Origin: Hyphococcus sp.
GTDB lineage: Bacteria; Pseudomonadota; Alphaproteobacteria; Caulobacterales; Parvularculaceae
Assembly (NCBI GenBank): GCA_013002535.1
Contig: JABDJK010000032.1
Location: 1 to 57,261, forward strand
Length of the DNA: 57,261 bases
Reading direction: 5' to 3'
The position numbers and the translations under genes are program-made. Shown here piece after piece: positions 2,328-57,261 of the stretch; the stretch's first letter is position 1; every line of letters begins with the position of its first letter. Under the pieces are notes generated by a model. That model was not told the DNA's origin. It ran no database searches and saw nothing but the letters and a program-made list of their open reading frames with translations.

Positions 2328-2438
2328 TGGAATAGGTGAGACGCGATCAATTTGCAAAGCTGGCGCGCCGCCAATAAACCTGCTTTTATAGGGAATTAGC
2401 GTCTGTCATTGGGGCGGTTAGGGGAATATCTTAAGCGT

Positions 2439-3437
2439 ATGTCTTCGGTTGTTGAACCTGTAATTTCGGATGCGCCAATTGACGATCGGCATGAGGCGAC
2501 GATGAATGACGCCGCAGCGTCAGCATCGTCGCCCGATCCGGCCGCCGCGCGTCCCGTTAAGAAAAAAACCAGGCGCAGTCACATCAACGACGCAACCTCA
2601 GGCAAGAATTCAAAGAACGAAAACTTTCCCGTCGGATCATTTCTGTTGCCGAAGCGTTTGCGGCCCCATGTGGCGAAGTTTTATCGCTATGCGCGCGCAA
2701 TTGACGATGTTGCTGACGATCCAAATTTAAGCCCGGAAGAAAAAGTCGTGAAGCTCCATGCGTTTCGCGCTGTGCTGGAAGGCGAGAAAGGGTTTGGATC
2801 AGATTATGATTCAGCGAGGGCGTTACGGCTCTCGCTGGCGGAAACTGGCGTTACGACCCGCCATGGCGCCGATCTTGTTGCGGCGTTCGTCCAAGATGCG
2901 AACAAGAACCGGTACCAGACGTGGGGCGAATTGCTCGGCTATTGCGAATTGTCCGCAAATCCGGTCGGGCGTTATCTCCTGGACCTGCACGGTGAAGATG
3001 AAGCGGGTTACCGATATTCCGACGCGCTATGCACCGCGCTTCAGATCATCAATCATCTTCAGGATTGTCGCGACGACTATCTTTTGCTTAACCGGGTTTA
3101 TATCATCGGCGACTGGATGGCTGAGGAAGGCGCAAAAGTCAGCGACGTTTCCTTGCGTGTCCTGAACCCCGCAATGCGGCGCGTGACCATGCGAATGCTT
3201 GACGGGTGTGAGGATCTGATGGCGGAAGCAAAACAATTGCCGTCCGCGCTAAAATCCAAACATCTCGCCATGGAATCGGCGGTGATTATTCGCCTGGCCA
3301 TTCGCTTAATAAAATTGCTCCGCAATGGCGATCCATTGGCCGAACGCATCGACCTCACCAAGTTCGATTTTGCATCGGCTGGCATGCGCGGCGCCATCGC
3401 CGGATATTTCTCGGCGGGGAGCGGCGCCAAGCCGTGA
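2439..3437 (+). CDS. hpnC: HpnC, squalene synthase-type enzyme (hydroxysqualene synthase)
   Basis: HpnC converts presqualene diphosphate to hydroxysqualene in the three-enzyme HpnC/D/E squalene route. The 332-residue product carries the trans-isoprenyl diphosphate synthase motifs of the phytoene/squalene synthase family: ENFPVGSFLLPKRLRPHV near residue 65, the first Asp-rich motif AIDDVADD, and the second HLQDCRDDY. An atypical ~60-residue Ala/Ser/Lys-rich N-terminal extension looks disordered. The ATG at 2439 has an AGGGGAA sequence about 10 bases upstream and is preferred to a TTG at 2409. The stop overlaps the GTG start of hpnD by 4 bases (GTGA), so translation is likely coupled. Confidence 0.93.
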   Translation: MSSVVEPVISDAPIDDRHEATMNDAAASASSPDPAAARPVKKKTRRSHINDATSGKNSKNENFPVGSFLLPKRLRPHVAKFYRYARAIDDVADDPNLSPEEKVVKLHAFRAVLEGEKGFGSDYDSARALRLSLAETGVTTRHGADLVAAFVQDANKNRYQTWGELLGYCELSANPVGRYLLDLHGEDEAGYRYSDALCTALQIINHLQDCRDDYLLLNRVYIIGDWMAEEGAKVSDVSLRVLNPAMRRVTMRMLDGCEDLMAEAKQLPSALKSKHLAMESAVIIRLAIRLIKLLRNGDPLAERIDLTKFDFASAGMRGAIAGYFSAGSGAKP

Positions 3438-4309
3438 CTACCGCTTCGCCTGCAATATCAACGAACGCTGCGAAGCGTCACGCAGAAAGTGTCGTTCGCG
3501 AGTCCGGAACGTCATTTGGCGCTGGCATGCGCATTCTTTCCAAAGCGCGGCGCGAGGCGATGTACGCTGTCTATGCGTTTTGCCGCGAGGTCGATGATAT
3601 TGCTGACGGCGAGCTTCCGGGCCCGGACAAAAAACACGCGCTGCAGCAATGGCGCCTAGAGGTTGAGCGCATTTTTAGAGGCGCGCCGCAAACGCCCACA
3701 GGCGTCGCGCTTATCGATCCGGTCAACGAATTCAATTTGCCGAAATCGGAATTCTTTCTTGTCATTGAAGGCATGGAGATGGACGCTATGGGCCCGATTG
3801 TGGCGCCGACTAAGGACGGTCTATTCGCATATACGCGCCGCGCGGCCGGCGCCGTCGGTATGTTATCGATGCCAATCTTCGGTGCAGCACAAGGAGCGCG
3901 CGAGCAAGAGTTTGCCCTTTCCCTTGGCGACGCCCTGCAACTGACCAACATACTACGCGATGTCGAAGAGGACGCCGCGATAGGTCGGTTATACCTGCCG
4001 TATGAGCTTTTGAAAAAGCATGGGTGCCCGCTGACGCCAGACGCAATCGCGACTGCCGAGGGATTGCCCGCCGTTCGGGGCGAGCTCGCGGGGATTGCTC
4101 GCCAGAAATTTGCCGATGCGCGTGCAGCGCTCGCCAATCTCGATTGGAAAACGTTGCGCCCGGCGCTTTTGATGATGGGCGTCTATGAGCGCTATCTCGA
4201 CAAGATGGAAAAACGCGGCTGGGTAAACGGCCAGGCGCCAGTAAAAATATCAAAACTCGAGAAATCAGCGATCGCATTGCGTTGGTTTTTTGCGCCGAAG
4301 CGCGCATAA
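3434..4309 (+). CDS. hpnD: HpnD, presqualene diphosphate synthase
   Basis: HpnD condenses two farnesyl diphosphates to presqualene diphosphate. The 291-residue product shows the family signatures: SGTSFGAGMRILSKARR-type N-terminus, YAVYAFCREVDDIADG (first Asp-rich motif) and LGDALQLTNILRDVEEDA with LYLPYELL (second). It starts with GTG inside the hpnC stop. It is followed after 9 bases by the 2OG-Fe(II) oxygenase and then hpnE, so the four genes form one tight operon. The pairing with HpnC distinguishes it from a lone phytoene synthase. Confidence 0.93.
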   Translation: MTTASPAISTNAAKRHAESVVRESGTSFGAGMRILSKARREAMYAVYAFCREVDDIADGELPGPDKKHALQQWRLEVERIFRGAPQTPTGVALIDPVNEFNLPKSEFFLVIEGMEMDAMGPIVAPTKDGLFAYTRRAAGAVGMLSMPIFGAAQGAREQEFALSLGDALQLTNILRDVEEDAAIGRLYLPYELLKKHGCPLTPDAIATAEGLPAVRGELAGIARQKFADARAALANLDWKTLRPALLMMGVYERYLDKMEKRGWVNGQAPVKISKLEKSAIALRWFFAPKRA

Positions 4310-4318
4310 GGTTTTCTT

Positions 4319-5041
4319 ATGAGTGGTTTTGACGATAACGGATTAATTGCTGGCGCGCCGATAGCGCCGGAGAGCTGGCACAACGTGGTAAAAGGCGTGC
4401 CGCCGGGGCGCATCATTTCAAATTACACTGCCCCGCCTGGTATTTTTGTTATCCAGAATTTTTGCGAGCCGGGCTGGTGCGATCAACTGGTGCGCGAATG
4501 CGAAGGACAGGCTGGCGCGCGCCACAGGGTTGGCGCCGGCGGGGGCGGAGATCTTGATGCGAGCGTCAATGACCGACGCACCTCGGACGCGATCGATTCA
4601 CATGACTTGCAAACAGATATTGTGAGCGCCATTCGCATGCTCTTTACCGGGCCAATCTCACAGCATTTTCAAGTGCAGATTGACTGGTTTGAGCGCCCGG
4701 AAATCTTGCGTTACCGCGACGGCGGCGAATACAAAGCCCACGCGGACTCGCAGATCTTTGATCCAAACGAAAAAAAGTATAACCGCGTTATCGATCGCGA
4801 CCTTTCTATTCTGGTCTATCTGAATGGCGACTTCGACGGCGGCGAACTTTATTTTCCAAGCTTTGATTTCGGACTGAAACCGCAGCGCGGTATGGTCGCG
4901 GCGTTTCCGTCGGATGGGCGTTTTGTGCACCTTGCCCGGCCCGTCACGAATGGTACGAAATATACGATTGTTTCCTGGGCGGCGGCGAAGGGCGGCCCGA
5001 GGGTCATGGCCGGTCCGCCGAATACCGCAATGATGGTGTAA
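4319..5041 (+). CDS. 2OG-Fe(II) oxygenase (prolyl-4-hydroxylase-like) embedded between hpnD and hpnE
   Basis: This 240-residue protein has a C-terminal double-stranded beta-helix of the prolyl 4-hydroxylase/PKHD type. The iron ligands are visible as His141-x-Asp143 (YKAHADSQ) and His204 (FVHLARPV). Lys214 (NGTKYTIVSW) sits where the family places the basic residue that binds 2-oxoglutarate. The FDGGELYFPSFDFGLKPQRGM segment is the usual hairpin before the distal His. An AAGG sequence precedes the ATG. The gaps are 9 bases after hpnD and 11 bases before hpnE, so it is part of the squalene operon. Its substrate is not known. Squalene, a hopanoid or a membrane lipid is inferred from context; protein hydroxylation cannot be excluded. 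Confidence 0.87.
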   Translation: MSGFDDNGLIAGAPIAPESWHNVVKGVPPGRIISNYTAPPGIFVIQNFCEPGWCDQLVRECEGQAGARHRVGAGGGGDLDASVNDRRTSDAIDSHDLQTDIVSAIRMLFTGPISQHFQVQIDWFERPEILRYRDGGEYKAHADSQIFDPNEKKYNRVIDRDLSILVYLNGDFDGGELYFPSFDFGLKPQRGMVAAFPSDGRFVHLARPVTNGTKYTIVSWAAAKGGPRVMAGPPNTAMMV

Positions 5042-5052
5042 GAGGCAGCGCG

Positions 5053-6324
5053 ATGGGGCGGGTCCATATCATCGGCGCAGGTCTTTCGGGGTTATCGGCT
5101 GCGGCGCGGCTTGCGGATCGCGGTGAAGAGGTTGTCGTTTACGAAAGCGCGCAGCAAGCGGGTGGTCGGTGCCGATCGTTTTATGACAAACATCTCGGCT
5201 GTGAAATCGACAATGGCAATCATCTCATCATGTCGGGTAATCACGCTGCGAAAAAGTTTCTCGACCTGATCGGATCGAAAGATGCGCTTATTGGACCGCC
5301 ATTTGCGATTTATCCCTTTGTTGACATCAGAACTGGCGAGCGCTGGACCGTGCGCATCAATGAAGGGTTCATCCCGTTCTGGGTGCTCGACAAGAAATGG
5401 CGCGTGCCGGATACGAAAATCTCAGACTATATGCGCGCCGGCGCCATAGCGTTTGCAGGCGATGAAAAGACTGTCGCGGATATCGTCGATAAAGATTCCA
5501 AACTCTATGAATGTTTCTGGGAGCCGTTGACGCTGGCGGTGTTGAACACGACGCCGGAAATCGGTCAGGCGAAACTTTTGTGGAGCGTCATTCGCGAAAC
5601 GTTTTTGTTGGGCGGGCAGGCGTCTACGCCGCTTGTCGCAAAAGACGGGCTTGGCCCGGCGTTTATCGATCCGGCTTTAAAGTTTATCGAATCGAATGGC
5701 GGCATTGTCCGGTTTGGCGCGCGGCTGAAGGCGTTTTGGCCGGAGGGCGGACGCGTCGCGAGCCTCAACTTTACCGACGAGACCGTAACGCTCGACGAAG
5801 AGGACAGCGTAATTTTCGCCATTCCGCCATCACGGTTGAAACAATTGATGCCGGAGCTTGATCCGCCAGCGGATGACGCCTCAATCCTAAATGTGCATTT
5901 TCGCATGGCGGCGCCGGTCGATACAAAAGCGCTGGGCGCGGGGCCGTTTATTGCGCTCATTTCCTCGCTAGCCCAATGGGTTTTTGTGCGCGGCGACGTC
6001 ATCAGTGTGACGACTAGCGCGGCTCACGCGATAGGAGCCGACGATCAGCCGAATAAAGAAGTCGTTGACCACATTTGGCGCGAAGTTTCTGTTGCGTTGG
6101 ATTTGGACGGTAAGCCTTACGAAAAATCGCGCGTCATCCGTGAAAAACGCGCAACGCCGGACCAGTCGCCGGCCGGAGCCGCAAAGCGGCTAAAACTCGA
6201 AACGCAATATAGCAATCTGTTTCTCGCTGGCGATCACACTGATACTGGCGTGCCAGCGACAATCGAGGGGTCGATCAGGTCTGGGGAGCGGGCGGCGGAA
6301 TTGGTTTTAGGAATGACGGCCTGA
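5053..6324 (+). CDS. hpnE: HpnE, hydroxysqualene dehydroxylase (FAD amine-oxidase family)
   Basis: HpnE reduces hydroxysqualene to squalene in the HpnC/D/E route. The 423-residue product begins with the FAD-binding Rossmann motif IIGAGLSGLSAAARLAD (GxGxxG at residues 8-13), followed by an acidic residue in VVYESA and the GGRCRSF segment. The C-terminal LFLAGDHTDTGVPATIEGSIRSG is the second FAD-contact motif of this flavoprotein group. The length is normal for HpnE. The gene starts 11 bases after the 2OG-Fe(II) oxygenase, with AGAGG upstream of its ATG. Confidence 0.93.
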   Translation: MGRVHIIGAGLSGLSAAARLADRGEEVVVYESAQQAGGRCRSFYDKHLGCEIDNGNHLIMSGNHAAKKFLDLIGSKDALIGPPFAIYPFVDIRTGERWTVRINEGFIPFWVLDKKWRVPDTKISDYMRAGAIAFAGDEKTVADIVDKDSKLYECFWEPLTLAVLNTTPEIGQAKLLWSVIRETFLLGGQASTPLVAKDGLGPAFIDPALKFIESNGGIVRFGARLKAFWPEGGRVASLNFTDETVTLDEEDSVIFAIPPSRLKQLMPELDPPADDASILNVHFRMAAPVDTKALGAGPFIALISSLAQWVFVRGDVISVTTSAAHAIGADDQPNKEVVDHIWREVSVALDLDGKPYEKSRVIREKRATPDQSPAGAAKRLKLETQYSNLFLAGDHTDTGVPATIEGSIRSGERAAELVLGMTA

Positions 6325-13899: not shown

Positions 13900-16512
13900 C
13901 TATTTTTTGAAAAAGGACTCTGTTGCGGGTCGAATGCCAAGCCGCCGGTCAGTGTAATTAAAGACCGCCGGCAACACGACCAAAGTACAAATTAGCGTGA
14001 ACGCGATGGCGATCGAGAGAAGCTCGCCCATGGACGCCGTGCCGCGATGGGGGGAGAGCATAAGGCTGCCGAAAGATGCGACGGTGGTGAGCGCCGCGAA
14101 CAGAACCGCACGCGGGGTTGAGGTGCCATAGACGCCTTCGCCCGCCGCCACCTGATCATGGCGGAGCACCAGATGAATGCCGCTGTCAACGCCGATACCG
14201 ATGAGGAGAGGGAGGACGATTACGTTGGCGTAATTGAATGGCACATCAAGAAGAACGCCTGTTGCAGCCGTTAAGACCGCGGCAAGCGCAAGCGGGAACA
14301 GGACGAGCATCACGATGCGAACGCGCCGGACGAGAAGCCATAGAAATATTGCGACAACAGCGAAGGCGATGCCTGTTGCTTGCAACATCGCGCTTGAGAT
14401 GACTTCCCCGGCCTTGCCTGATTGATAAGCGCCGCCGGTCAAGTCCGGGAACACAGCTTCGACTTCGTCTACGAAGCGGTCAAGGGCTTTGCGGTCACGA
14501 ACATCTTCCTTGGGCAAAATATCAACGCGCCATTCGCCGCCTTTTGATAGATATCGACTGGCGAGCGTCGTCGGCAGCGTATCAAGTTCAATGTAGTCCG
14601 CGTTCATTTGCGCACGTAGTCGAGCGATAAGCTGCGGCCAATAGGCGAAAATGTTTTGTTCAATGCGATTATAGATGTTGGTGTCGCCGGACTCCCGCGC
14701 GCGCTCAAGTGCGGCAGTCAATTGTGCTGCGTCGCCCTCGTTGTAAGCTTCACGCAGCCTTGTTTCGAGGGCGCTCGCGCCAGCTGCGGCGCCGGGGCCC
14801 TCGACGGAATTCGGTTCGGCGTCGAGGGCAAAGACTAAAGAACCTGCAGCGAAATCGATGACTTCCAGTTTCGCATCTTGATCCTCGGGCACGAAATCCG
14901 GCAGGGATCGCGTCGACGCAACACCCGGCAGGGCTTTTGCTTTTTCCGCTGTCTCGCGCGCGTTCTCTTCGCTCTTGGCCAGCCGCGTCAGGCGATAAGG
15001 CGCGGTGTCATCATTTTCAAAGAGCAGGTTAAACCCAACAACCGATTGCGCCTTTTCATTGCGGAGCGACATCTGGTCCGCGTCGAATCGCACTTGCGGC
15101 ATTAACAAAAGCGCGAAGATACCGACAGTGACTGTTACGAATGCAACGGGTCCGGAATATTTCGAAAGCGCGTTAAAGAATTTTCTGATTTGCCCTGTTC
15201 GTTCACGTTTCTTGGAAACAGGCAAGCGCGCAAGCGCCGCTGGCAGGAACGTTACCGAAACAAGAAAGGCGATGATGACGCCGACGCCAGCGATAACGCC
15301 AAGCTGGGCGATGCCGTCAAAGCGTGTCGGAACAAACGACAAAAATGCGAGCGCTGTCGTTGGCGCCGCGAGCGCCAGCGCCGGGCCGACTTCGTGCAGC
15401 GCGCCTTTCAACGCGTCTTCATTGGACTGTCCGTCAACGCGCCGTTCTTGAATGTGAAGGAGCAAGTGAATGGCGAAGTCTAAACCGAGCCCGATGAGCA
15501 GCACGGTAAAGGCGACGGAAACGAGATTTAGCTCGCCCATAAACGCCGCGGCGAACGCGGATGTAAAAACAAGCGTCAAAATCAAACCGATGACCGTGAG
15601 CGCCGCCATAGCAACGGAGCGATAGCAAATCAGAAGAAGGAAACTGACCAGCACCAGTGACAACAGCATCGACATGCCGATGCCGGTTGTGACCGCTTCA
15701 AGTTCCTCTATCCGAAGGGCCGGATCGCCAGTGATATAGGTCTCAACGCGGCCGTTAAATTTCGCGTCGAGTTTTGCGATTTCCTCGCGCAATTTGTTGA
15801 CGCCCGCCTTCGCCGGCTGCAGTCGCGTAAAATCAAGTTCCGGCGTTGTGTATAAAAGCCGCGTGTGAACCGGTGTCGCCGCGGTCTCCGCGTCAAGCGC
15901 ACCCATCCATGAAAATGGCCGCGTTTCATTGGCAAGGCTTGCCTCGACAACATTGGTAAGCTCGCCGTATATTTTTTGTAGCGTATCCTGACCAAGCTCG
16001 GATCGTTCGGCGAGTTCGTCATTGTCGGCGAGGGTTTCGAAAAATTTTCCTGCCGTCGGCGTTTTGATGAGCGTCTCAATTAATCCGGCCGCCTTGGACA
16101 TTTGCGTCATGCGGCTTTCAAGCTCGCGCTCCGATAAATATAAAAGCCCGTTTTCCGCAAAGAACGGCTCCTGGCTTGGCGCGAAGACGGCGGAGAAATT
16201 CTCTTTGTCCGCGAGAAGGATCGCGCGCATATCAGCGATATAGGCGTCGGCTTCGTCCAGCGTCGGCGCGCGCGCCATCAAAATGATGTCGTTTTTCGTT
16301 TGTGGAAACGCTTCGCGCAACGCCGCCGAACGCACCTGAAAATCGAGCGTCGGGTCGAGCATTGAACTGGTGTCGGTATTGACCTTCAAATGCCCCGCCG
16401 CGTACCAGCCGGCGCCGCCAGCGGCGATGAGGATCACAAGCGCAAGCAAAATACCGCCGCGCCGCGCCATATCGGACCAGGCGATCAGCGTTTTTTCTAT
16501 CAACTGCAACAT
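13900..16512 (-). CDS. hpnN: HpnN, hopanoid-associated RND/MMPL transporter
   Basis: This 870-residue inner-membrane RND-superfamily exporter is implicated in moving hopanoids to the outer membrane. It has the duplicated layout: one N-terminal membrane helix (LLALVILIAAGGAGWY), a periplasmic loop of ~230 residues, then five to six helices with an internal GLDFAIHLLLH motif. A second periplasmic loop and a second helix bundle with GVDSGIHLVLRH follow. The two Gly-x-Asp-x-x-Ile-His motifs mark the two MMPL repeats. The length fits HpnN. hpnM lies downstream on the same strand. Confidence 0.92.
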   Translation of the reverse strand: MLQLIEKTLIAWSDMARRGGILLALVILIAAGGAGWYAAGHLKVNTDTSSMLDPTLDFQVRSAALREAFPQTKNDIILMARAPTLDEADAYIADMRAILLADKENFSAVFAPSQEPFFAENGLLYLSERELESRMTQMSKAAGLIETLIKTPTAGKFFETLADNDELAERSELGQDTLQKIYGELTNVVEASLANETRPFSWMGALDAETAATPVHTRLLYTTPELDFTRLQPAKAGVNKLREEIAKLDAKFNGRVETYITGDPALRIEELEAVTTGIGMSMLLSLVLVSFLLLICYRSVAMAALTVIGLILTLVFTSAFAAAFMGELNLVSVAFTVLLIGLGLDFAIHLLLHIQERRVDGQSNEDALKGALHEVGPALALAAPTTALAFLSFVPTRFDGIAQLGVIAGVGVIIAFLVSVTFLPAALARLPVSKKRERTGQIRKFFNALSKYSGPVAFVTVTVGIFALLLMPQVRFDADQMSLRNEKAQSVVGFNLLFENDDTAPYRLTRLAKSEENARETAEKAKALPGVASTRSLPDFVPEDQDAKLEVIDFAAGSLVFALDAEPNSVEGPGAAAGASALETRLREAYNEGDAAQLTAALERARESGDTNIYNRIEQNIFAYWPQLIARLRAQMNADYIELDTLPTTLASRYLSKGGEWRVDILPKEDVRDRKALDRFVDEVEAVFPDLTGGAYQSGKAGEVISSAMLQATGIAFAVVAIFLWLLVRRVRIVMLVLFPLALAAVLTAATGVLLDVPFNYANVIVLPLLIGIGVDSGIHLVLRHDQVAAGEGVYGTSTPRAVLFAALTTVASFGSLMLSPHRGTASMGELLSIAIAFTLICTLVVLPAVFNYTDRRLGIRPATESFFKK

Positions 16513-50208: not shown

Positions 50209-50817
50209 TTATTTTCGCTCCGCAGCTTTCTGTTGCGCTGACATGAGGTAGATCTCGGCGAGGGCGGTGGCGATCTCAGCGCGTTCCGATGCGCTCCTGC
50301 CGGGGTCGGCGATCGTTGCGCGCACAATGAGCTCCCTGGACTGGTCGCCCTGCGGCGCAAGCGCGCTCCACAAAACGACATGCGAACCGCTATCGTCATT
50401 GGCCATTATGTTGGCGACGCCGACGCTGCTTATGGCTTCATAGGCGCCTCCTGCGCCGTTGCCATAGGCGTCGGCGACCGCGGCGCTCCCCATGGCTGAT
50501 GAAATAGCGGACCAGTCAGCAATGAGGGCGATACGCGCCCCGCCGCTGGAATAGGCGCAGGACCAGGGTGCGGATCCCGCGCCGGACTGCTTGTTCTCCG
50601 GCGCTGGCGTGACGTTGGCGAGATCGGCCACGCCGAGTTCGGACTGTGCCCGGTTTGCTGTCAGGACGACACAGGGGTCGGGCGGGCTGGCAATCTCGGT
50701 TTTGTGGATGCTGCGCATGGGCGCAGCGATCGTGTCAGACGATGGAGACGTTGTCGTCTCGCCGCCGCATGCTGCGAGAACAACGCCGGTCGTAAAAGTT
50801 AAAAACGTTTTGTGCAT
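50209..50817 (-). CDS. Exported lipoprotein, paralogue of the one at 51968
   Basis: This 202-residue lipoprotein has a signal peptide ending in lipobox VLAAC (Cys17). The mature part has a Thr/Ser-rich linker, then PDPCVVLTANRAQSELGV, WSCAYSS and a C-terminal IADPGRSASERAEIATALAEIY. The Pro-x-Pro-Cys-x-x-Leu-Thr-Ala...Cys-Ala-Tyr pattern and the tail match the neighbouring lipoprotein at 51968-52663, and the pair of cysteines may form a disulfide. The pattern is reminiscent of DUF3558-type lipoproteins (loose resemblance). The ATG at 50817 begins the signal peptide. It is the last gene of the four-gene operon (30 bases after the preceding stop). Confidence 0.72.
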   Translation of the reverse strand: MHKTFLTFTTGVVLAACGGETTTSPSSDTIAAPMRSIHKTEIASPPDPCVVLTANRAQSELGVADLANVTPAPENKQSGAGSAPWSCAYSSGGARIALIADWSAISSAMGSAAVADAYGNGAGGAYEAISSVGVANIMANDDSGSHVVLWSALAPQGDQSRELIVRATIADPGRSASERAEIATALAEIYLMSAQQKAAERK

Positions 50818-50847
50818 ATTGCATTTCCTCTCTGCGTGAATGGCCAA

Positions 50848-51933
50848 TTAGTTTGCGCCTATTAGCGACGTATTTTGCAACTGTTCTTCGAGCCATTTTT
50901 CATATTGTTGCAGAGAGCCGACGCGCGCATCGACGACGGTTTTTGTAATTTGCATCGTCATCTTATTTTCAAGCAGGCGGATTTGCCGTTCGGCTTGCTC
51001 CAGCGCGCCTTGCATCATGCGCGTAAACTGCTCTTGTTGTGCAGGCGGCAGCGATCGCAATTGATCGCGGTTTTCTTCGAAGTCCTTGCGCGCTTTGGCG
51101 AGATCTTTTCGCGCCTTGGCGAGCTCTTTCAAATCTTTCTCGTTCAGGTTCGGCAAGCCCAGCGTCATTTCGGTTTCATGCGGGATCAGCATTGTCGTGT
51201 CGGCGCCACTGAGCGTTTTCAAGAATCGATGTTTGCGGTCGACGCGCTGGATGAAGAACGGTTCTGTTCTTTTTTTCGATTTGGCGATGCCGTCGACTCG
51301 CATACCGAGCGGGATATCACGTTGTTTGTCGATCATCAGGGCGGCGGACTTTATTGTGTATTCGACGCCATCATCAACCTGGGTTTTGTTCAGTCCGTCG
51401 GCAAACAGGAGATGTGCGTCATGGCCTTCAGCGGAAATGACGCTTGCGATGGCGGCAGCGCCGCCAAGCTCGCGCAGGTCCCGGTCACCCTGACGAACCG
51501 CCTCTTTCTGTTCTTCGGGCAATTGGTGCAAGGCCCACCCGGCGCCGCGGGACATGTCAAAAAATCCCTGGCTAATATCGCCATAATCGGCGCCAAGCTC
51601 GCCGGTAGCTAAACCAAGCGCCGCCAGCATTCCGATACCGCCCATCGCATAGTAATCGCCGACTGGTCCAAGCGCGCGTTTCGTGGCCTCGCCTGGATTC
51701 ACGTGTCGAAAGCCTATGGTTTTGCCGCCATCCTTCACGGCTTCCATATAAATGAATGCATCGGGCGTATTGGGAATGCCTGTTGTCTCACGAAGAAAAA
51801 AGCCGTCAATACCGTTCATGCGCGCAGCCTGCCGAGTCTGCATTGCATCCATGATATCCGCAGCGCTCTCTTGCGCGACGACCGCAGGCGCGACGGTGAA
51901 GCTCGCGGCTAATGAAAGGATTAGCTTACGCAT
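50848..51933 (-). CDS. Secreted protein with C-terminal coiled coil, function unknown
   Basis: The 361-residue exported protein has a signal peptide MRKLILSLAASFTVAPAVVA. It starts with GFFLRETTGIPNTPDAFIYMEAV and FRHVNPGEATKRAL segments. Gly-rich GGIGMLAALGLATGELGADYGDI follows. A beta-rich part (YTIKSAALMIDKQRDIPLGMRVDGI) recalls LolA-like or lipid-binding barrels only in pattern. The last ~110 residues are a charged coiled coil with an AKARKDLAKARKDF internal duplication. The ATG at 51933 has AGGAGA upstream; the longer frame starting 52023 would overlap the preceding gene. No recognised family. Confidence 0.75.
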   Translation of the reverse strand: MRKLILSLAASFTVAPAVVAQESAADIMDAMQTRQAARMNGIDGFFLRETTGIPNTPDAFIYMEAVKDGGKTIGFRHVNPGEATKRALGPVGDYYAMGGIGMLAALGLATGELGADYGDISQGFFDMSRGAGWALHQLPEEQKEAVRQGDRDLRELGGAAAIASVISAEGHDAHLLFADGLNKTQVDDGVEYTIKSAALMIDKQRDIPLGMRVDGIAKSKKRTEPFFIQRVDRKHRFLKTLSGADTTMLIPHETEMTLGLPNLNEKDLKELAKARKDLAKARKDFEENRDQLRSLPPAQQEQFTRMMQGALEQAERQIRLLENKMTMQITKTVVDARVGSLQQYEKWLEEQLQNTSLIGAN

Positions 51934-51967
51934 TTTCGGTCTCCTTGAATTAGAGTTGTTACGATGG

Positions 51968-52663
51968 TTATTTCGATCGTTTCTCCGCGACATTAATAAG
52001 TTCGGAGTTGAAGGCGACACCAAGATTGCGCGCCTCGGTCAGGCGTTGCTCTTGTGTACGTGCTGGATCGGTGATGGCGACGACGAAAGCGGCTTCAGCC
52101 TGGACGGCGCCGGTGTCGCCGCCGGCGACGCCAAGGCCCGACATGATGAACATGGACGCGGCGTCATCAGCCTCGGCGACGAAACGCGCGGCGCCCGGAC
52201 CGAAATCCGCCGGCGCATAGCGCGCGCCCGCCGGGAATTGCTGATCGATCATCGGGGTCAACGCATTGGCAGACAGCGACGAATTAAAAAACATATAGGG
52301 CAGGTTCGCCGCGTGAATCGAAACGCTCTTGCCCAATCCCTCGGTATCGCGATAAGCGCAGCGTGGGCTCTTGTCGCCGGGACTGTCATTGTCAGGGTCA
52401 GCGACAACCTCGCGCACATTGAGAATGTTCTGCGCCACCGCCGCGGTCAGAATGCGGCATGGCGAGGGCAGGTCTGCGACGACATATTCCGGACCCGTCG
52501 CTTTCGCTACTTTTTCCTCGATCGCGGCGCGCGTGTCGCCAGACGAACGGGGGGCGGCGCGTTCCGCCTTCCCGGTAGTTGTTTCATCGCCTGCGCCGCA
52601 TGAGGCGAGTAAAAGCAGCGAGAGAGAGATGAATAGAAAAGAACGCGCTGATTTCACTGACAT
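51968..52663 (-). CDS. Exported lipoprotein, paralogue of the one at 50209
   Basis: This 231-residue lipoprotein has a signal peptide with lipobox LLASC (Cys22). The mature region has LPSPCRILTAAVAQNILNV, SPRCAYRDTEG and a C-terminal VVAITDPARTQEQRLTEARNLGVAFN, matching the smaller lipoprotein of the same operon. Its ATG at 52663 lies two bases after the LamG gene's stop, so translation is probably coupled. The two cysteines may pair. Function is unknown. Confidence 0.75.
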   Translation of the reverse strand: MSVKSARSFLFISLSLLLLASCGAGDETTTGKAERAAPRSSGDTRAAIEEKVAKATGPEYVVADLPSPCRILTAAVAQNILNVREVVADPDNDSPGDKSPRCAYRDTEGLGKSVSIHAANLPYMFFNSSLSANALTPMIDQQFPAGARYAPADFGPGAARFVAEADDAASMFIMSGLGVAGGDTGAVQAEAAFVVAITDPARTQEQRLTEARNLGVAFNSELINVAEKRSK

Positions 52664-52665
52664 TT

Positions 52666-54300
52666 TTAATCGACCCCGATTGCGCGGCAAACGAGCTGTA
52701 AGCCCACGATTTCCCTAGAGTCCATGATCCCGGATTCGTTATAATGGACGATCATACCGGTCGCGAGCGTGTCTGAAGGACATAGGACGGGATTGTGCCA
52801 CTCTTTGCAGTTGTTAAGCGCCTCCGTTTGCACATTTGGCCAATAGACTGTGCTGCCGTCCGCATTTATTCTGTCGCCTCTGATCCTGATACCTTTTAAT
52901 CGGCGATTGGAATTGAATGACGAACATACTTCAATTGATCCGACGGCGGCCTGGTCTGGATAGGGATAGAGTCCGACGGATTTGCTTAAACTTTCCGGCT
53001 CGCCGCACCCCCAATTTGCTTCCCCATTTAACACAATTCGACACGGCCGGTCTCCCCGTTCCCACCACTCGATACGATGAAGGAAATCAGTTTTCAAATC
53101 GACCATCCCGGTGGTTGCACCCTCATATCCCGAAAGCCCGGAAAATTTTGGTTCGCCCACAGGACGCGGCTTACCGTTAGCTTCAAGCGCCTGCTGCTGA
53201 TCGCGCGCGGTTGCTTCTTCGCGCTCCCGCGCCGCTTCCTCTCTTTGACGCGCGGCCGCTTCAGCGGCTTCCGGCGAGTCGTATTGCGGTTTCGGCGCAC
53301 CGGTAGGCAGTTGCCCGATCTCAGGGTTGTTGATCTCATCAGGAACCTGTCCGACCGGACGCTCTGATCCTTCGTCAAGATCCGGCGCTATGCCCGGCGT
53401 CCGGAAGTCAGGATCTTCAATCTCATTTGGCATCGCGCCAACGCTGCGCGCTTCCGAAGTCTTCGCCTCAAATTTATAGCGATCGTCTGGCAATGGTTGT
53501 GAGTCATACTGATCCCCAGGCAATTCCTCAGATTCATATTGGTCGCCGGGCAGGCTTGCGATATCAACTTCTGAATTCTTTTCGGTTTCTCCAATCATCG
53601 CACCGCCGTCGCGGATGGCTGCGACCTGATCTTCGCTCAAGGCGCCAGCGTAAATGCGGACGTCATCAATCGCGAGTGGTCTACGCGTGGCGCCGAATAC
53701 GTCATGGCTTTTGCCGCCAATAAAAAGATAGGCCTGTTTCTCCGCATCGGGATTGTCCGGATCGGGGTAGACCCGCGGTGATGTGGTGGTTGTGTCGAGT
53801 CCTGACATTGTCGAGACGCCCTCAGCGATATGGATCCGCGCCCACCCCTCGGCCATGTCGACGACGCCGGCGACGAAAACCCATTCGTCATGCGGCGGCC
53901 GAGGTCCACTGAAGGAGACGCCCCTAGGCCCGGCGCGCACTGCGAGCGATCCATTGAAGATGAGCCGATAACCGGCGTCCGCACCGGTGGAGACGATGTG
54001 ACGTGTGCCCCGGGCGTCTTTTGGCTGCTTGATCCACGCCGTGACTGTCACCTGCGGATATTGCGCGTGATCGAGAGTGAAAGGCATGGCCAACAAGGCC
54101 TTGCCGTCGAACTGGATCGCCTTGCCATACTTGCCCGGAATACCTGTCGCCGTTCCGCCGTCCGTGGTGTGGAGCTTGGCGTCGCCGTTATCGGGGCTCT
54201 CCATCGGGAAATGCAGCAACAGCGTCTGCGCGTGAGCTGGCGTCAAGGAGATGGCCAATATCGCACCTGCGGCCGTAAAATGTTTTCGCAGTTTGCTCAT
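52666..54300 (-). CDS. Secreted LamG-domain protein with 10-residue repeats
   Basis: The 544-residue protein has a signal peptide (KHFTAAGAILAISLTPAHA). A LamG/concanavalin-like jellyroll follows at residues ~25-235: LLLHFPMESPDNGDAKLHTTDGG, GKYGKAIQFDGKALLAMPF, VTVTAWIKQPKDARG, EWVFVAGVVDMAEGWARIHIAEG and PLAIDDVRIYAGALSEDQVAAI. An acidic linker carries three LPGDQY-type units, then a Glu/Arg/Ala-rich stretch. A C-terminal domain (~residues 400-544) contains several cysteines in an uncharacterised beta-rich fold. AAGGAA lies upstream of the ATG at 54300. It heads a four-gene export operon and is divergent from the large LuxR-type regulator. Confidence 0.83.
   Translation of the reverse strand: MSKLRKHFTAAGAILAISLTPAHAQTLLLHFPMESPDNGDAKLHTTDGGTATGIPGKYGKAIQFDGKALLAMPFTLDHAQYPQVTVTAWIKQPKDARGTRHIVSTGADAGYRLIFNGSLAVRAGPRGVSFSGPRPPHDEWVFVAGVVDMAEGWARIHIAEGVSTMSGLDTTTTSPRVYPDPDNPDAEKQAYLFIGGKSHDVFGATRRPLAIDDVRIYAGALSEDQVAAIRDGGAMIGETEKNSEVDIASLPGDQYESEELPGDQYDSQPLPDDRYKFEAKTSEARSVGAMPNEIEDPDFRTPGIAPDLDEGSERPVGQVPDEINNPEIGQLPTGAPKPQYDSPEAAEAAARQREEAAREREEATARDQQQALEANGKPRPVGEPKFSGLSGYEGATTGMVDLKTDFLHRIEWWERGDRPCRIVLNGEANWGCGEPESLSKSVGLYPYPDQAAVGSIEVCSSFNSNRRLKGIRIRGDRINADGSTVYWPNVQTEALNNCKEWHNPVLCPSDTLATGMIVHYNESGIMDSREIVGLQLVCRAIGVD
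53476..53553 (-). repeat. 30-base tandem repeat in the LamG gene linker
   Basis: The codons for LPGDQY (53536-53553), LPGDQY (53506-53523) and LPDDRY (53476-53493) recur at exactly 30-base intervals, so the protein carries three 10-residue units in its linker. The two first units are identical in the motif, the third diverged. It suggests recent expansion of the linker. Confidence 0.8.
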
Positions 54301-54552
54301 TGGCTGAATTCCTTCTATTCGCCCGGTCGTTGCGCCAAGACGCAAGCGCGCCGTTTCGAATGCGCTTCGCGCTCCGGCGAGAACGGTAGTTCCCGCCGGA
54401 GCGCGATTTCGGCGTTCTCCCCCGAACGCAATCGTCTCAGGCCCGCGCCAAGCAATCGATATCTACTATACGGCGCTTGCTGTGCAGCCGCGTTACTCAA
54501 ATTTCGGCGAAGCGCCCTCATTTTTTGTCAATCCTTGCGTCATCCTGTCGAT
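54301..54552. promoter_or_regulatory. Divergent intergenic region controlling the LamG operon and the LuxR-type regulator
   Basis: The 252 bases between the start codons must contain both promoters. A GC-rich imperfect inverted repeat around 54369-54414 (GCTCCGGCGAGAACGG, then CCGCCGGAGCGCGA) could be a hairpin or operator. No convincing -35/-10 pair can be picked with confidence. Confidence 0.35.
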
Positions 54553-57261
54553 ATGGCGGGCAAGGACGGGCATAATGGCGCCTACGAACGCTATTTTGAG
54601 AAAGTCGGAAATCTTTTGCTCATCGAACGAAAAGACGAACTGGCGGCTCTGCTGTCGTGGCACCGGCATACCCGAGAAGGGCGCGGCGGGATCGTATTTG
54701 TTCGCGGCGAAGCAGGCCTCGGTAAGACCTCGTTGATAACCGCCTTGTGCGATCAAGTCCGCGAAATCAACGCCGTCTTCTGGGGCGGGTGCGAGGCGCT
54801 CTACACACCCAGACCCCTGGGTCCGCTGTTCGATATGATGGACAGTTTTTCAGACGATGTTCGCTTGCTGCTGAACGAAAGCGGGCGGCGCTCAATTGAA
54901 CTTTATTCAAGGATCGTGAGCGATTTTGAGAAATCCTCGCCGGGCGATGTTCTTGTTATTGAGGACATTCATTGGGCGGACTTTGCGACGCTGGATTTCC
55001 TGAAGTATCTGGGACGACGTATTACAGCGGCGCCAATTCTCGTCATACTTAGTTTTCGAACAGATGAGATCACAGAAGAAAGCAAAGTTCAGGGCGTGTT
55101 GGACGGATTTCCCGCCGCCTTCGTCCATGACGTGGAATTAAAACCGTTGACGCGATCCGGCGTTGAAAAGCTTTGCGCCTCTTCGGGGCGTCGCCATCAG
55201 AGCGACGAATATTACGGAGTTTCAGGAGGCAATCCGTTTTTCGTCACTGAATTGTTGGCAAGCGGCGAGCGTCCGCATGCGGCGCTTCCGGCGTCCGTCA
55301 AGGATGCGGTTAATACGCGCCTATTGCGTCTGTCTCCGGAAGAACGCGATTTCCTCGAGACGCTGAGTATTCTTCCCGGCGCGATCCAGTTTTCCATAAT
55401 TCCGCGTTTATTTGGCGATGACGGCGAGTTGCTCGCCATGGCCGCGCTCGGTCGGAAACTCCTTTTGGAGACGCCCGGGAAAGCTTTGCGCTTTCGACAT
55501 GAGCTTGCTCGCCTCGCTACGCTCGCCCGGGTCCCGGCGACCCGGCAGCGCGAAATTCATGCTCGCGTATTGCGGGCGCTTCTTGACAGCAACGATCAGG
55601 ACACCGCGCATGACCAGCTTGTCCACCATGCGGCTGGGGCTCTCGATGCGGAAATGGTGTTGAAATTCGCGCCGCGCGCCGCAGAAAACGCCGCCGCCGT
55701 CGGCGCTCATCAGGAGGCGGCCTCGCATTATGCGACAGCGATGCGATTCGTGGATGAGGCGGATGCGGATCAAGCTGCAGAAATATATGAAAAGTGGGCG
55801 TATGAGGCTGGGTTATCGCTGCGCATTGATGACGAAGTCATCAAAGCTTACCAACACGCGATTACCCTGTGGCGGGCACTCGGTCGGCAAGACAAGGTCG
55901 CGGAAAACCTCACGCGCCTTTCCCGCATGCATTGGTATCGCGCTGAATCGGCGGAGGCGGCGCGATATGCCGACGAAGCTGTGCGTCTTCTTGAGGAGGC
56001 GCCGCCCAGCGCTGCGCAAGCCATGGGCTATAGCCTAAAATCCCAGTTGTATATGCTCAACGATAAAATGGAGGATGCGATCACCTGGGGCGAGAAGGCG
56101 CTCGAACTGGCGGAGAGATTTGACGATGCAGAAAGCCGGGTGCACGCGTTGAACAATGTCGGCGTTGCGCGCGCATTCCGCGGCGATTCATCGGGGGTTG
56201 ATCTGCTAGAAGTGAGTTTGTCGCTGGCGCTGGAGCATGGTTACCATGAACACGCTGCGCGCGTTTTTACAAACCTTTCTGAATATGGGGTCGAATTCAA
56301 AAATTTTGATCTCGCCGAGCGAACAATATCGGAAGGCGTTGCCTTTGATACAAAGAACGATCTTGATTCGTGGACGCACTACCTTATCGGGCGGCAAGCG
56401 CAACTGCGGTGCGAACAGGGGAGGCTGCACGACGCCCGGACTATAGCCGAAGGTGTCCTGCGCCTTGAGCGCCAGACACTGCTCATGAAGCTTCCCGCCC
56501 GACTCGTTCTGGCGAAAGTCAACATCATGCTCGGAGACGACGCGGCGCAGACGGTGCTTGCCGAAGCTGTCGATCACGCCGCGGCAACCGAAGAACCCCA
56601 ACATATCGTGCCGGCCCACCTTTCACGTTTGTTGTTCGCCTGGTTGCATGACAAAGCACGCATTGCGGAAGAAAGCTTGCGCCAGCTTTTCGATATTGGC
56701 GCTGACGCCATGCATCTCTGGCACCGCGGCGAGACAGCGGTTTGGTGTAACCGGTTTGCTTACCCGATCCCCGAAGAGTTCCGGGATGGATTGCCGCCGC
56801 CGATCCATCAGGAGCTTGACGGAAAGTTGAAAGTCGCCGCGGCGACCTGGAAAAAGTTAGGTGCGATACCCGCTATCGCGACGACGCTTGCTCAATCCAG
56901 GGAGAGCGATCAGCTGGGCGCTGCGATACAAATTAGTCGCGATATTGGCGCCGCGGCGATTGAAGAAAAGGTGCTTCGTCTTGCCTCTCGATTCGGGATT
57001 GCCAGTGAGCTTCCGAAGAAAAAGCGCGGACCATACAAGGCGGCGCGCAACCATCCATTAGGATTAACAGAGAAAGAACAAAAGGTGCTGTCGTTGCTCG
57101 TTGAAGGACACTCAAATTCCGATATCGCAGAGATATTATCGCGATCCAGGCGAACGGTGGAAAACCACGTTTCGTCAATACTTCGAAAACTCAGTGTGGA
57201 GCACAGGGTAGACGCAGCAATTTTAGTGCAGAGCGAACCTTGGCTGTTACCAAAAATTAAA
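54553..57261 (+). CDS. Large ATP-binding LuxR-family (LAL/MalT-like) regulator, 3' end beyond window
   Basis: The frame is open for 903 codons from the ATG at 54553 to the last base, so the stop lies outside the window. An N-terminal ATPase has Walker A at residues 52-59 (GEAGLGKT) and Walker B-like VLVIEDIHWADFATLDFL. LTRSGVEKLC, VSGGNPFFVTELL and LPASVKDAV are the usual LAL segments. A TPR-like helical region follows (residues ~380-800). A C-terminal LuxR helix-turn-helix lies at ~838-895 (LTEKEQKVLSLLVEGHSN, RRTVENHVSSILRKLSV). It is divergent from the LamG operon and is its likely regulator. The start lacks a clear Shine-Dalgarno; the frame is open further upstream, with a TTG at 54535. 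Confidence 0.88.
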   Translation, partial: MAGKDGHNGAYERYFEKVGNLLLIERKDELAALLSWHRHTREGRGGIVFVRGEAGLGKTSLITALCDQVREINAVFWGGCEALYTPRPLGPLFDMMDSFSDDVRLLLNESGRRSIELYSRIVSDFEKSSPGDVLVIEDIHWADFATLDFLKYLGRRITAAPILVILSFRTDEITEESKVQGVLDGFPAAFVHDVELKPLTRSGVEKLCASSGRRHQSDEYYGVSGGNPFFVTELLASGERPHAALPASVKDAVNTRLLRLSPEERDFLETLSILPGAIQFSIIPRLFGDDGELLAMAALGRKLLLETPGKALRFRHELARLATLARVPATRQREIHARVLRALLDSNDQDTAHDQLVHHAAGALDAEMVLKFAPRAAENAAAVGAHQEAASHYATAMRFVDEADADQAAEIYEKWAYEAGLSLRIDDEVIKAYQHAITLWRALGRQDKVAENLTRLSRMHWYRAESAEAARYADEAVRLLEEAPPSAAQAMGYSLKSQLYMLNDKMEDAITWGEKALELAERFDDAESRVHALNNVGVARAFRGDSSGVDLLEVSLSLALEHGYHEHAARVFTNLSEYGVEFKNFDLAERTISEGVAFDTKNDLDSWTHYLIGRQAQLRCEQGRLHDARTIAEGVLRLERQTLLMKLPARLVLAKVNIMLGDDAAQTVLAEAVDHAAATEEPQHIVPAHLSRLLFAWLHDKARIAEESLRQLFDIGADAMHLWHRGETAVWCNRFAYPIPEEFRDGLPPPIHQELDGKLKVAAATWKKLGAIPAIATTLAQSRESDQLGAAIQISRDIGAAAIEEKVLRLASRFGIASELPKKKRGPYKAARNHPLGLTEKEQKVLSLLVEGHSNSDIAEILSRSRRTVENHVSSILRKLSVEHRVDAAILVQSEPWLLPKIK

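What the first reader, a model, noticed from the sequence alone, without database searches (positions are those of the whole stretch)
50209..57261. Undescribed export operon with LamG protein, twin lipoproteins and a dedicated LAL regulator
Seen: four minus-strand genes with 2, 34 and 30 base gaps all carry signal peptides, two with lipoboxes, and a divergent giant LuxR-type ATPase regulator faces them. None of the products except the LamG fold is recognised. Inference: an envelope or extracellular system, possibly binding a glycan through LamG and triggered by a ligand sensed by the LAL ATPase.
Basis: partly seen in the sequence, partly recalled or inferred. Interest (0 to 1): 0.72.

Follow-up and report, generated by a model that had tools for sequence, protein, structure and literature searches.

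The report
LAL-switched secreted lectin and lipoprotein operon
An alphaproteobacterium carries a large MalT-like ATPase switch facing a four-gene operon for secreted proteins, one of them probably a two-headed sugar-binding protein; relatives suggest that the switch has its own conserved DNA box and that such secreted-protein cassettes are mixed and matched, which gives a testable regulon.

Summary
In detail: four minus-strand genes with gaps of 2, 34 and 30 bases, four signal sequences, two lipoboxes and a divergent LAL regulator that runs off the contig end. Nothing here exports; the products are exported. New: (1) the LamG protein's C-terminal domain models as a beta-prism (jacalin/RbmC/VMO-I-like) lectin fold, so D is probably a two-headed glycan binder. 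(2) LAL relatives (17 loci) carry a tandem direct-repeat box, about (A/C/G)CCYAWWTTT twice, 19-22 bp apart, 106-172 nt upstream of the LAL: 14 of 14 held-out LAL genes against 0 of 190 control promoters at a cut-off chosen afterwards (10 of 14 at a stricter one). The window's copy is weak and variant, but two relatives share the variant. (3) Of 9 beta-prism genes found in the order, 5 lie beside this LAL and 2 beside an ECF sigma/Ser-Thr kinase pair, whose cassettes lack the box. Against "dedicated": the window's D-C-B set was found again only in Marinicaulis flavus, under the sigma/kinase pair. Cassettes are mosaic, with lectin, beta-lactamase-fold and zinc-peptidase-like parts. Function (matrix or polymer binding) is inferred.

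The parts
50209..50817 (-). gene A: 202-aa lipoprotein (LAAC lipobox), weak DUF3558, distant paralogue of C
50848..51933 (-). gene B: 361-aa secreted/periplasmic protein, no family; relatives in Marinicaulis flavus and G005; strands and long C-terminal helices in a low-confidence model
51968..52663 (-). gene C: 231-aa lipoprotein (LASC lipobox), weak DUF3558
52666..54300 (-). gene D: 544-aa secreted protein: LamG, LPGDQY-type repeats and charged linker, beta-prism domain
53620..54054 (-). Laminin_G_3 domain of D (residues 83-227)
52669..53160 (-). C-terminal beta-prism (VMO-I/jacalin-like) domain of D
54367..54406 (-). 40-bp inverted repeat (18-nt arms, 94% complementary) between D and the LAL, in the presumed 5' leader of D
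54495..54524 (+). variant tandem direct-repeat box (ACTCAAATTT-N10-CCCTCATTTT), 121 nt upstream of TTG 54616
   Evidence: only 3.3 bits with model R1
54553..57261 (+). LAL/MalT-type STAND regulator (AAA_16 - TPR - GerE), open at the contig end; start ATG 54553 or TTG 54616

Best explanation
The LAL protein is a MalT-like STAND switch. An unknown ligand is sensed by its TPR part, the ATP-bound form assembles on tandem direct repeats upstream of its own gene, and transcription of the LAL and of the divergent secreted operon rises together. The operon puts out D, a secreted protein with a LamG lectin-like head, a disordered-looking repeat linker and a beta-prism lectin-like tail, which would bridge two glycans (cell surface, matrix polymer or prey/host polymer), plus two envelope lipoproteins (A, C) and a secreted or periplasmic protein (B) that would anchor or chaperone it. 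Shown by sequence: gene order, domains, recurrent linkage, the box conserved upstream of LAL genes, and its absence upstream of the two cassettes under another regulator. Predicted by model: the beta-prism fold. Inferred: DNA binding, activation, ligand, localisation and glycan bridging.
Against: The window's own box is weak: 3.3 bits with model R1, and R1 found no site at E<=1 in 4 of 16 LAL genomes, the window's included. The D-C-B set was seen again only under a sigma/kinase pair in M. flavus. B-like genes were seen only in M. flavus and G005 (80 genomes, plus one weak hit at E 0.0056), and the G005 one is on another contig than its LAL; relatives of C were sought only among 23 cassette proteins. 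10 of 17 LAL loci have no LamG/beta-prism/beta-lactamase cassette. One perfect half-box lies in the gap between the sigma and the kinase gene of the M. flavus C1 locus. An unguided search of five intergenic regions gave only a marginal shared motif. B could not be modelled (pLDDT 43).
Confidence: 0.55

Rival explanations
1. Degradation cassette: the LAL switches on a secretome for attacking a glycan or proteinaceous polymer, and D is its substrate-binding part, the hydrolases lying elsewhere in this genome.
For: Sister LAL loci encode secreted beta-lactamase-fold proteins (G005, G024 with BTRD1 polyglycine-hydrolase repeats, G027) and astacin or other HExxH proteins (G565, G027; HExxH read by eye).
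Against: No catalytic domain is seen in the window's four genes.
Confidence: 0.25
2. The LAL only autoregulates and sits beside the operon by chance or shared transfer; D-C-B-A has its own control.
For: 10 of 17 LAL loci lack a cassette although 10 of those 10 have a box-like pair at score 11 or more; the closest D-C-B copy is under a sigma/kinase pair; the window box is weak.
Against: 5 of 9 beta-prism genes in the order lie beside this rare LAL (12 of 200 genomes); half-boxes precede cassette genes away from the LAL.
Confidence: 0.15
3. Competition or defence effector: a lectin-like antibacterial protein released on detection of rivals.
For: Chicken VMO-1, a beta-prism protein, inhibits Listeria (PMC4904793, passages).
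Against: No PADLOC match beyond the HTH of the LAL; no immunity gene evident.
Confidence: 0.05

Closest known systems
MalT (E. coli), LAL/STAND transcription activators
   Same: NTPase - TPR sensor - GerE order; tandem direct DNA repeats near a target promoter (MalT boxes recalled; the STAND mechanism from the abstract of PMC4381067)
   Different: Far below the MalT equivalog model (29.9 of 537 bits); likely targets are secreted lectin/lipoprotein cassettes; box sequence unrelated to any that I know of
RbmC and Bap1, Vibrio cholerae biofilm matrix proteins
   Different: LamG in place of their other domains; 12-15% identity over the structural match only; matrix role untested here
VMO-I (vitelline membrane outer layer protein)
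   Same: VOMI matches in four members, one (G565) above the Pfam cut-off; beta-prism fold (passage of PMC4904793)
   Different: The window protein itself is below the VOMI cut-off
TIGR02999 ECF sigma + Ser/Thr kinase pairs
   Same: Divergent regulator pair beside the homologous cassette in M. flavus C1 and G043
   Different: The window has a LAL instead

Membership tests
LAL/MalT-type STAND regulators | N-terminal STAND-type NTPase with Walker A/B | tested here: met
   AAA_16 62.6 bits of 32.6; GEAGLGKT at residue 52, LVIED at 134
LAL/MalT-type STAND regulators | TPR-type middle region | tested here: met
   TPR_12 34.0 of 30.1; TPR_MalT itself 34.5 of 45, below its cut-off
LAL/MalT-type STAND regulators | C-terminal LuxR/GerE HTH | tested here: met
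   GerE 58.5 of 23.5
LAL/MalT-type STAND regulators | ligand- and ATP-dependent binding to direct repeats | not testable with these tools
   tandem repeats found upstream; binding not measured
MalT (equivalog) | match to NF003420 above cut-off | tested here: not met
   29.9 of 537 bits
Laminin_G_3 (LamG) | Pfam cut-off | tested here: met
   40.6 of 27.6
VOMI (VMO-I) | Pfam cut-off | tested here: not met
   window 12.7 of 25; homologue G565 26.2
beta-prism lectin fold | three-sheet beta-prism | tested here: met
beta-prism lectin fold | carbohydrate binding | not testable with these tools
   no binding data
DUF3558 | Pfam cut-off | tested here: not met
   A 17.8 and C 22.7 of 34.1

The most novel reading that the evidence does not exclude
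A STAND-ATPase-controlled, lectin-based extracellular response system of Parvularculaceae and related families: one sensor clade with its own tandem-repeat operator (and a variant operator in the window/G027 clade) drives mosaic cassettes of two-headed lectins, envelope lipoproteins and, in sister loci, fused or neighbouring hydrolases; the same kind of cassette can be re-wired to an ECF sigma/kinase sensor.
Probability: 0.3. Interest if true: 0.7.

Novelty: new variant of a known kind. Interest (0 to 1): 0.55.

Why it matters
LAL regulators outside actinomycetes have few known operators or targets (recalled). Here one LAL clade comes with a predicted operator that can be tested by gel shift, a likely target operon and a natural control (a homologous cassette beside a sigma/kinase pair). 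It also adds a beta-prism domain family that Pfam barely sees, joined to LamG, which predicts sugar-bridging matrix or attack proteins in Parvularculaceae and relatives.

Tried and rejected
Export machinery: none of the five genes matched a transporter or secretion component above its cut-off. Defence system: PADLOC matched only HTH regions of the LAL. Phage origin: no PHROGs match for A-D at E<=0.01. Known RNA element: one chance Rfam match at E 0.9. B as a LolA-like protein: the AF2 model is too poor (pLDDT 43), so no fold search was made. Beta-prism by sequence against PDB: only leucine-rich-repeat, kinase-subunit and nuclear-pore hits that I take as spurious (best E 0.0004); B had one hit at E 1.5. 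Unguided motif search in five intergenic regions: marginal (best distance sum 14; minima of six shuffles 15-16). The window palindrome as a repeated operator: its perfect halves occur only here, and matches with up to one mismatch equal the control (19 against 21). B in plasmids: none. B in genome contigs by single sequence: none, a weak negative, since that scan missed M. flavus, which is in the collection and has a 59% identical B.

Literature: no paper held LamG with ECF sigma factor, protein kinase and lipoprotein, vitelline membrane outer layer with bacterial and LamG, Laminin_G_3 with sigma factor, kinase and operon, or LuxR, large ATP-binding, direct repeat and Alphaproteobacteria; one search listed 4 papers, none with LamG. 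Only open-licence papers were searched.

Full report
WHAT IS THERE. The window is one whole contig (C115) of a 3.4-Mb genome. At its right end four minus-strand genes D (LamG), C (lipoprotein), B and A (lipoprotein) lie with gaps of 2, 34 and 30 nt, and a LAL regulator faces them 252 nt away (315 nt if it starts at the homologous TTG). The LAL runs off the contig without a stop. Domains: D Laminin_G_3; LAL AAA_16, TPR_12 and GerE; A and C sub-threshold DUF3558; B nothing above cut-off. The only other genome seen with the same D-C-B order, G022, is Marinicaulis flavus SY-3-19 (its contig matched by L061), now Hyphococcus luteus, Parvularculaceae. The window's genome is in the same genus by the tool's kinship column.

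RELATIVES AND MOSAICISM. D-like proteins occur in 5 of 62 genomes of the family at E<=1e-10 and, in a thin sample of the class, only in the window's own (1 of 385, E<=1e-15). Their neighbourhoods differ. G022:C7: small secreted protein, D and lipoprotein Y, LAL divergent. G005: D with a Beta-lactamase domain, LAL divergent, and at the contig end a gene start that resembles G005's other, B-like gene over 21 residues; that B-like gene itself lies on another contig. G027: two LamG proteins, one with a HELGH motif, lipoproteins and the LAL (split over two contigs, with a beta-lactamase-fold lipoprotein near its 5' side). G043 and G022:C1: D with a divergent TIGR02999 sigma factor and Ser/Thr kinase. 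Lipoprotein X is shared by G022:C1, G005 and G565, Y by G022:C7, G027 and G758, and C by the window and G022:C1, among 23 proteins compared. In another family G565 has LAL | lipoprotein X, an astacin/FG-GAP protein, a double beta-prism protein and a HELFH protein.

IS THE LAL LINKED? The LAL profile found 9 of 62 family genomes (E<=1e-60) and 12 of 200 genomes of the order (E<=1e-100), 16 distinct in all. Five of the 16 lie beside LamG and/or beta-prism cassettes; a sixth (G024) faces a BTRD1/beta-lactamase secreted protein. The other ten do not in the stretches seen (17-20 kb fetched, the part nearest the LAL read): four sit in one conserved housekeeping site, three of these with a following alpha/beta-hydrolase-like gene, and the rest lie elsewhere, three of them beside a lipase-like gene (labels by eye). 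From the other side, a beta-prism profile found 8 of 398 genomes of the order with 9 genes: 5 beside the LAL (G000, G022:C7, G027, G565, G758), 2 beside sigma/kinase, 2 beside neither (G079, G766). In the family the 5 places found (4 of 62 genomes) were all such cassettes; in the class sample the 3 further hits were single secreted genes without a LAL in the stretch seen. The window and G027 LALs are sisters (100/100, C-terminal part).

THE BOX. In three LAL loci (G005, G022:C7, G024) I saw by eye pairs of (A/C/G)CCTAWTTTT-like sites about two helical turns apart. A weight matrix from those six half-sites was run on the 250 nt upstream of 17 LAL starts (homologous start chosen by me; that of G024 only approximate) and of 190 other genes in the same loci. 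All 14 held-out LAL promoters scored at least 11, 10 at least 12 and 9 at least 15; 0 of 190 controls reached 11 (best 10.5, itself upstream of the LamG gene of G758). The cut-off 11 was set after seeing the scores, and related promoters are not independent. Spacing is 19-22 bp, distance 106-172 nt; only the strand reading toward the LAL was scored, while one search scored both strands for 15 loci and found the best pair on that strand in 15 of 15. G758 is the cleanest test: it was found by its beta-prism gene, and its best pair in 14.6 kb, both strands, is in the right place. Window (11.4), G027 (11.4), G589 (11.4) and G565 (11.1) are weak. The window and G027 share the form ACTCAAWTTT...CCCTCAWTTT, and G758 combines ACTCAATTTT with ACCTAATTTT, which links the variant to the consensus. 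In one search the best local alignment of the window and G027 upstream regions was not the box but a neighbouring stretch (score 28; 2 of 300 shuffles as good).

GENOME-WIDE. A sequence model of 12 boxes (R1) was run on 32 genomes. Twelve of 16 LAL genomes have their LAL site at E<0.01, all twelve being training sites; the other four (G000, G027, G565, G589) have none at E<=1. Of 16 genomes without the LAL, 7 have a hit at E<=1 and none below 0.01 (best 0.035). One non-LAL site below 0.01 exists: M. flavus C9, 76 nt upstream of a PEP-CTERM-like secreted protein (sub-threshold, 16.5 of 20.7). With the half-site matrix, 7 of 332 non-LAL gene starts have a near-perfect half-site within 300 nt: lipoprotein X of G005, the divergent WD40/LamG pair in G027 and in G758 (two genes each), the C9 gene (fetched for its box, so not independent) and the kinase gene of M. 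flavus C1. The last counts against the reading: the site lies in the gap between that locus's sigma and kinase genes. Upstream of the first gene of the two sigma/kinase-side cassettes (lipoprotein X in G022:C1, D in G043) no half-site of 5 or more was found.

HOW IT MAY WORK. The order NTPase-TPR-HTH and tandem repeats two turns apart fit the MalT/STAND scheme of ligand-driven multimerisation (abstract of PMC4381067). Direct repeats are also the operator type of SARP-LAL PimR, which lacks the LuxR-type HTH (passages of PMC5930380). The box would drive the LAL and, in the other direction, the secreted operon. In G022:C7, G024, G005, G565 and G758 it lies 46-107 nt from the secreted gene's listed start; in the window and G027 about 205-225 nt, with a hairpin in between. 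G758 would join the latter two (about 180-210 nt, hairpin in between) if its lipoprotein starts at an in-frame ATG at 14005, before its signal sequence.

NOVELTY. I found no description in the searches named under Tried and rejected. The regulator type, LamG and the beta-prism are known kinds; the combination, the box and the regulator swap look new. I call it a new variant of a known kind.

Noticed in passing
window 54367-54406; L096:1721-1752; L109:14081-14110: GC-rich hairpins of unlike sequence between the box and the divergent secreted gene in the window (140-nt leader folds at z -4.7), G027 (z -2.2) and G758 (inverted repeat only, not folded; it overlaps the listed ORF start); no inverted repeat was reported at G022:C7.
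   Followed up: partly
L095:9742-9773: Second LAL box in Marinicaulis flavus, 76 nt upstream of a PEP-CTERM-like secreted protein: a candidate distant target.
   Followed up: partly
L035:195-3773: In G024 the LAL faces secreted genes including one with polyglycine-hydrolase-like BTRD1 repeats and a Beta-lactamase domain.
   Followed up: partly
L031, L032, L033 and L034, around the LAL: In four relatives the LAL sits in one conserved housekeeping site; in L031, L032 and L033 a co-oriented alpha/beta-hydrolase-like gene (label by eye) follows it, while in L034 the listed ORFs there do not show it clearly.
   Followed up: no
L040:8771-9430, L041:3203-3817, L042:2855-3634, L110:9513-10127: Single secreted beta-prism/VMO-like genes in other Alphaproteobacteria, without a LAL in the stretch seen.
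   Followed up: no
window 2409-6324: Two adjacent phytoene/squalene-synthase-like genes, an oxygenase-like gene and an FAD oxidoreductase-like gene: looks like an isoprenoid/hopanoid cluster (labels recalled, not searched).
   Followed up: no
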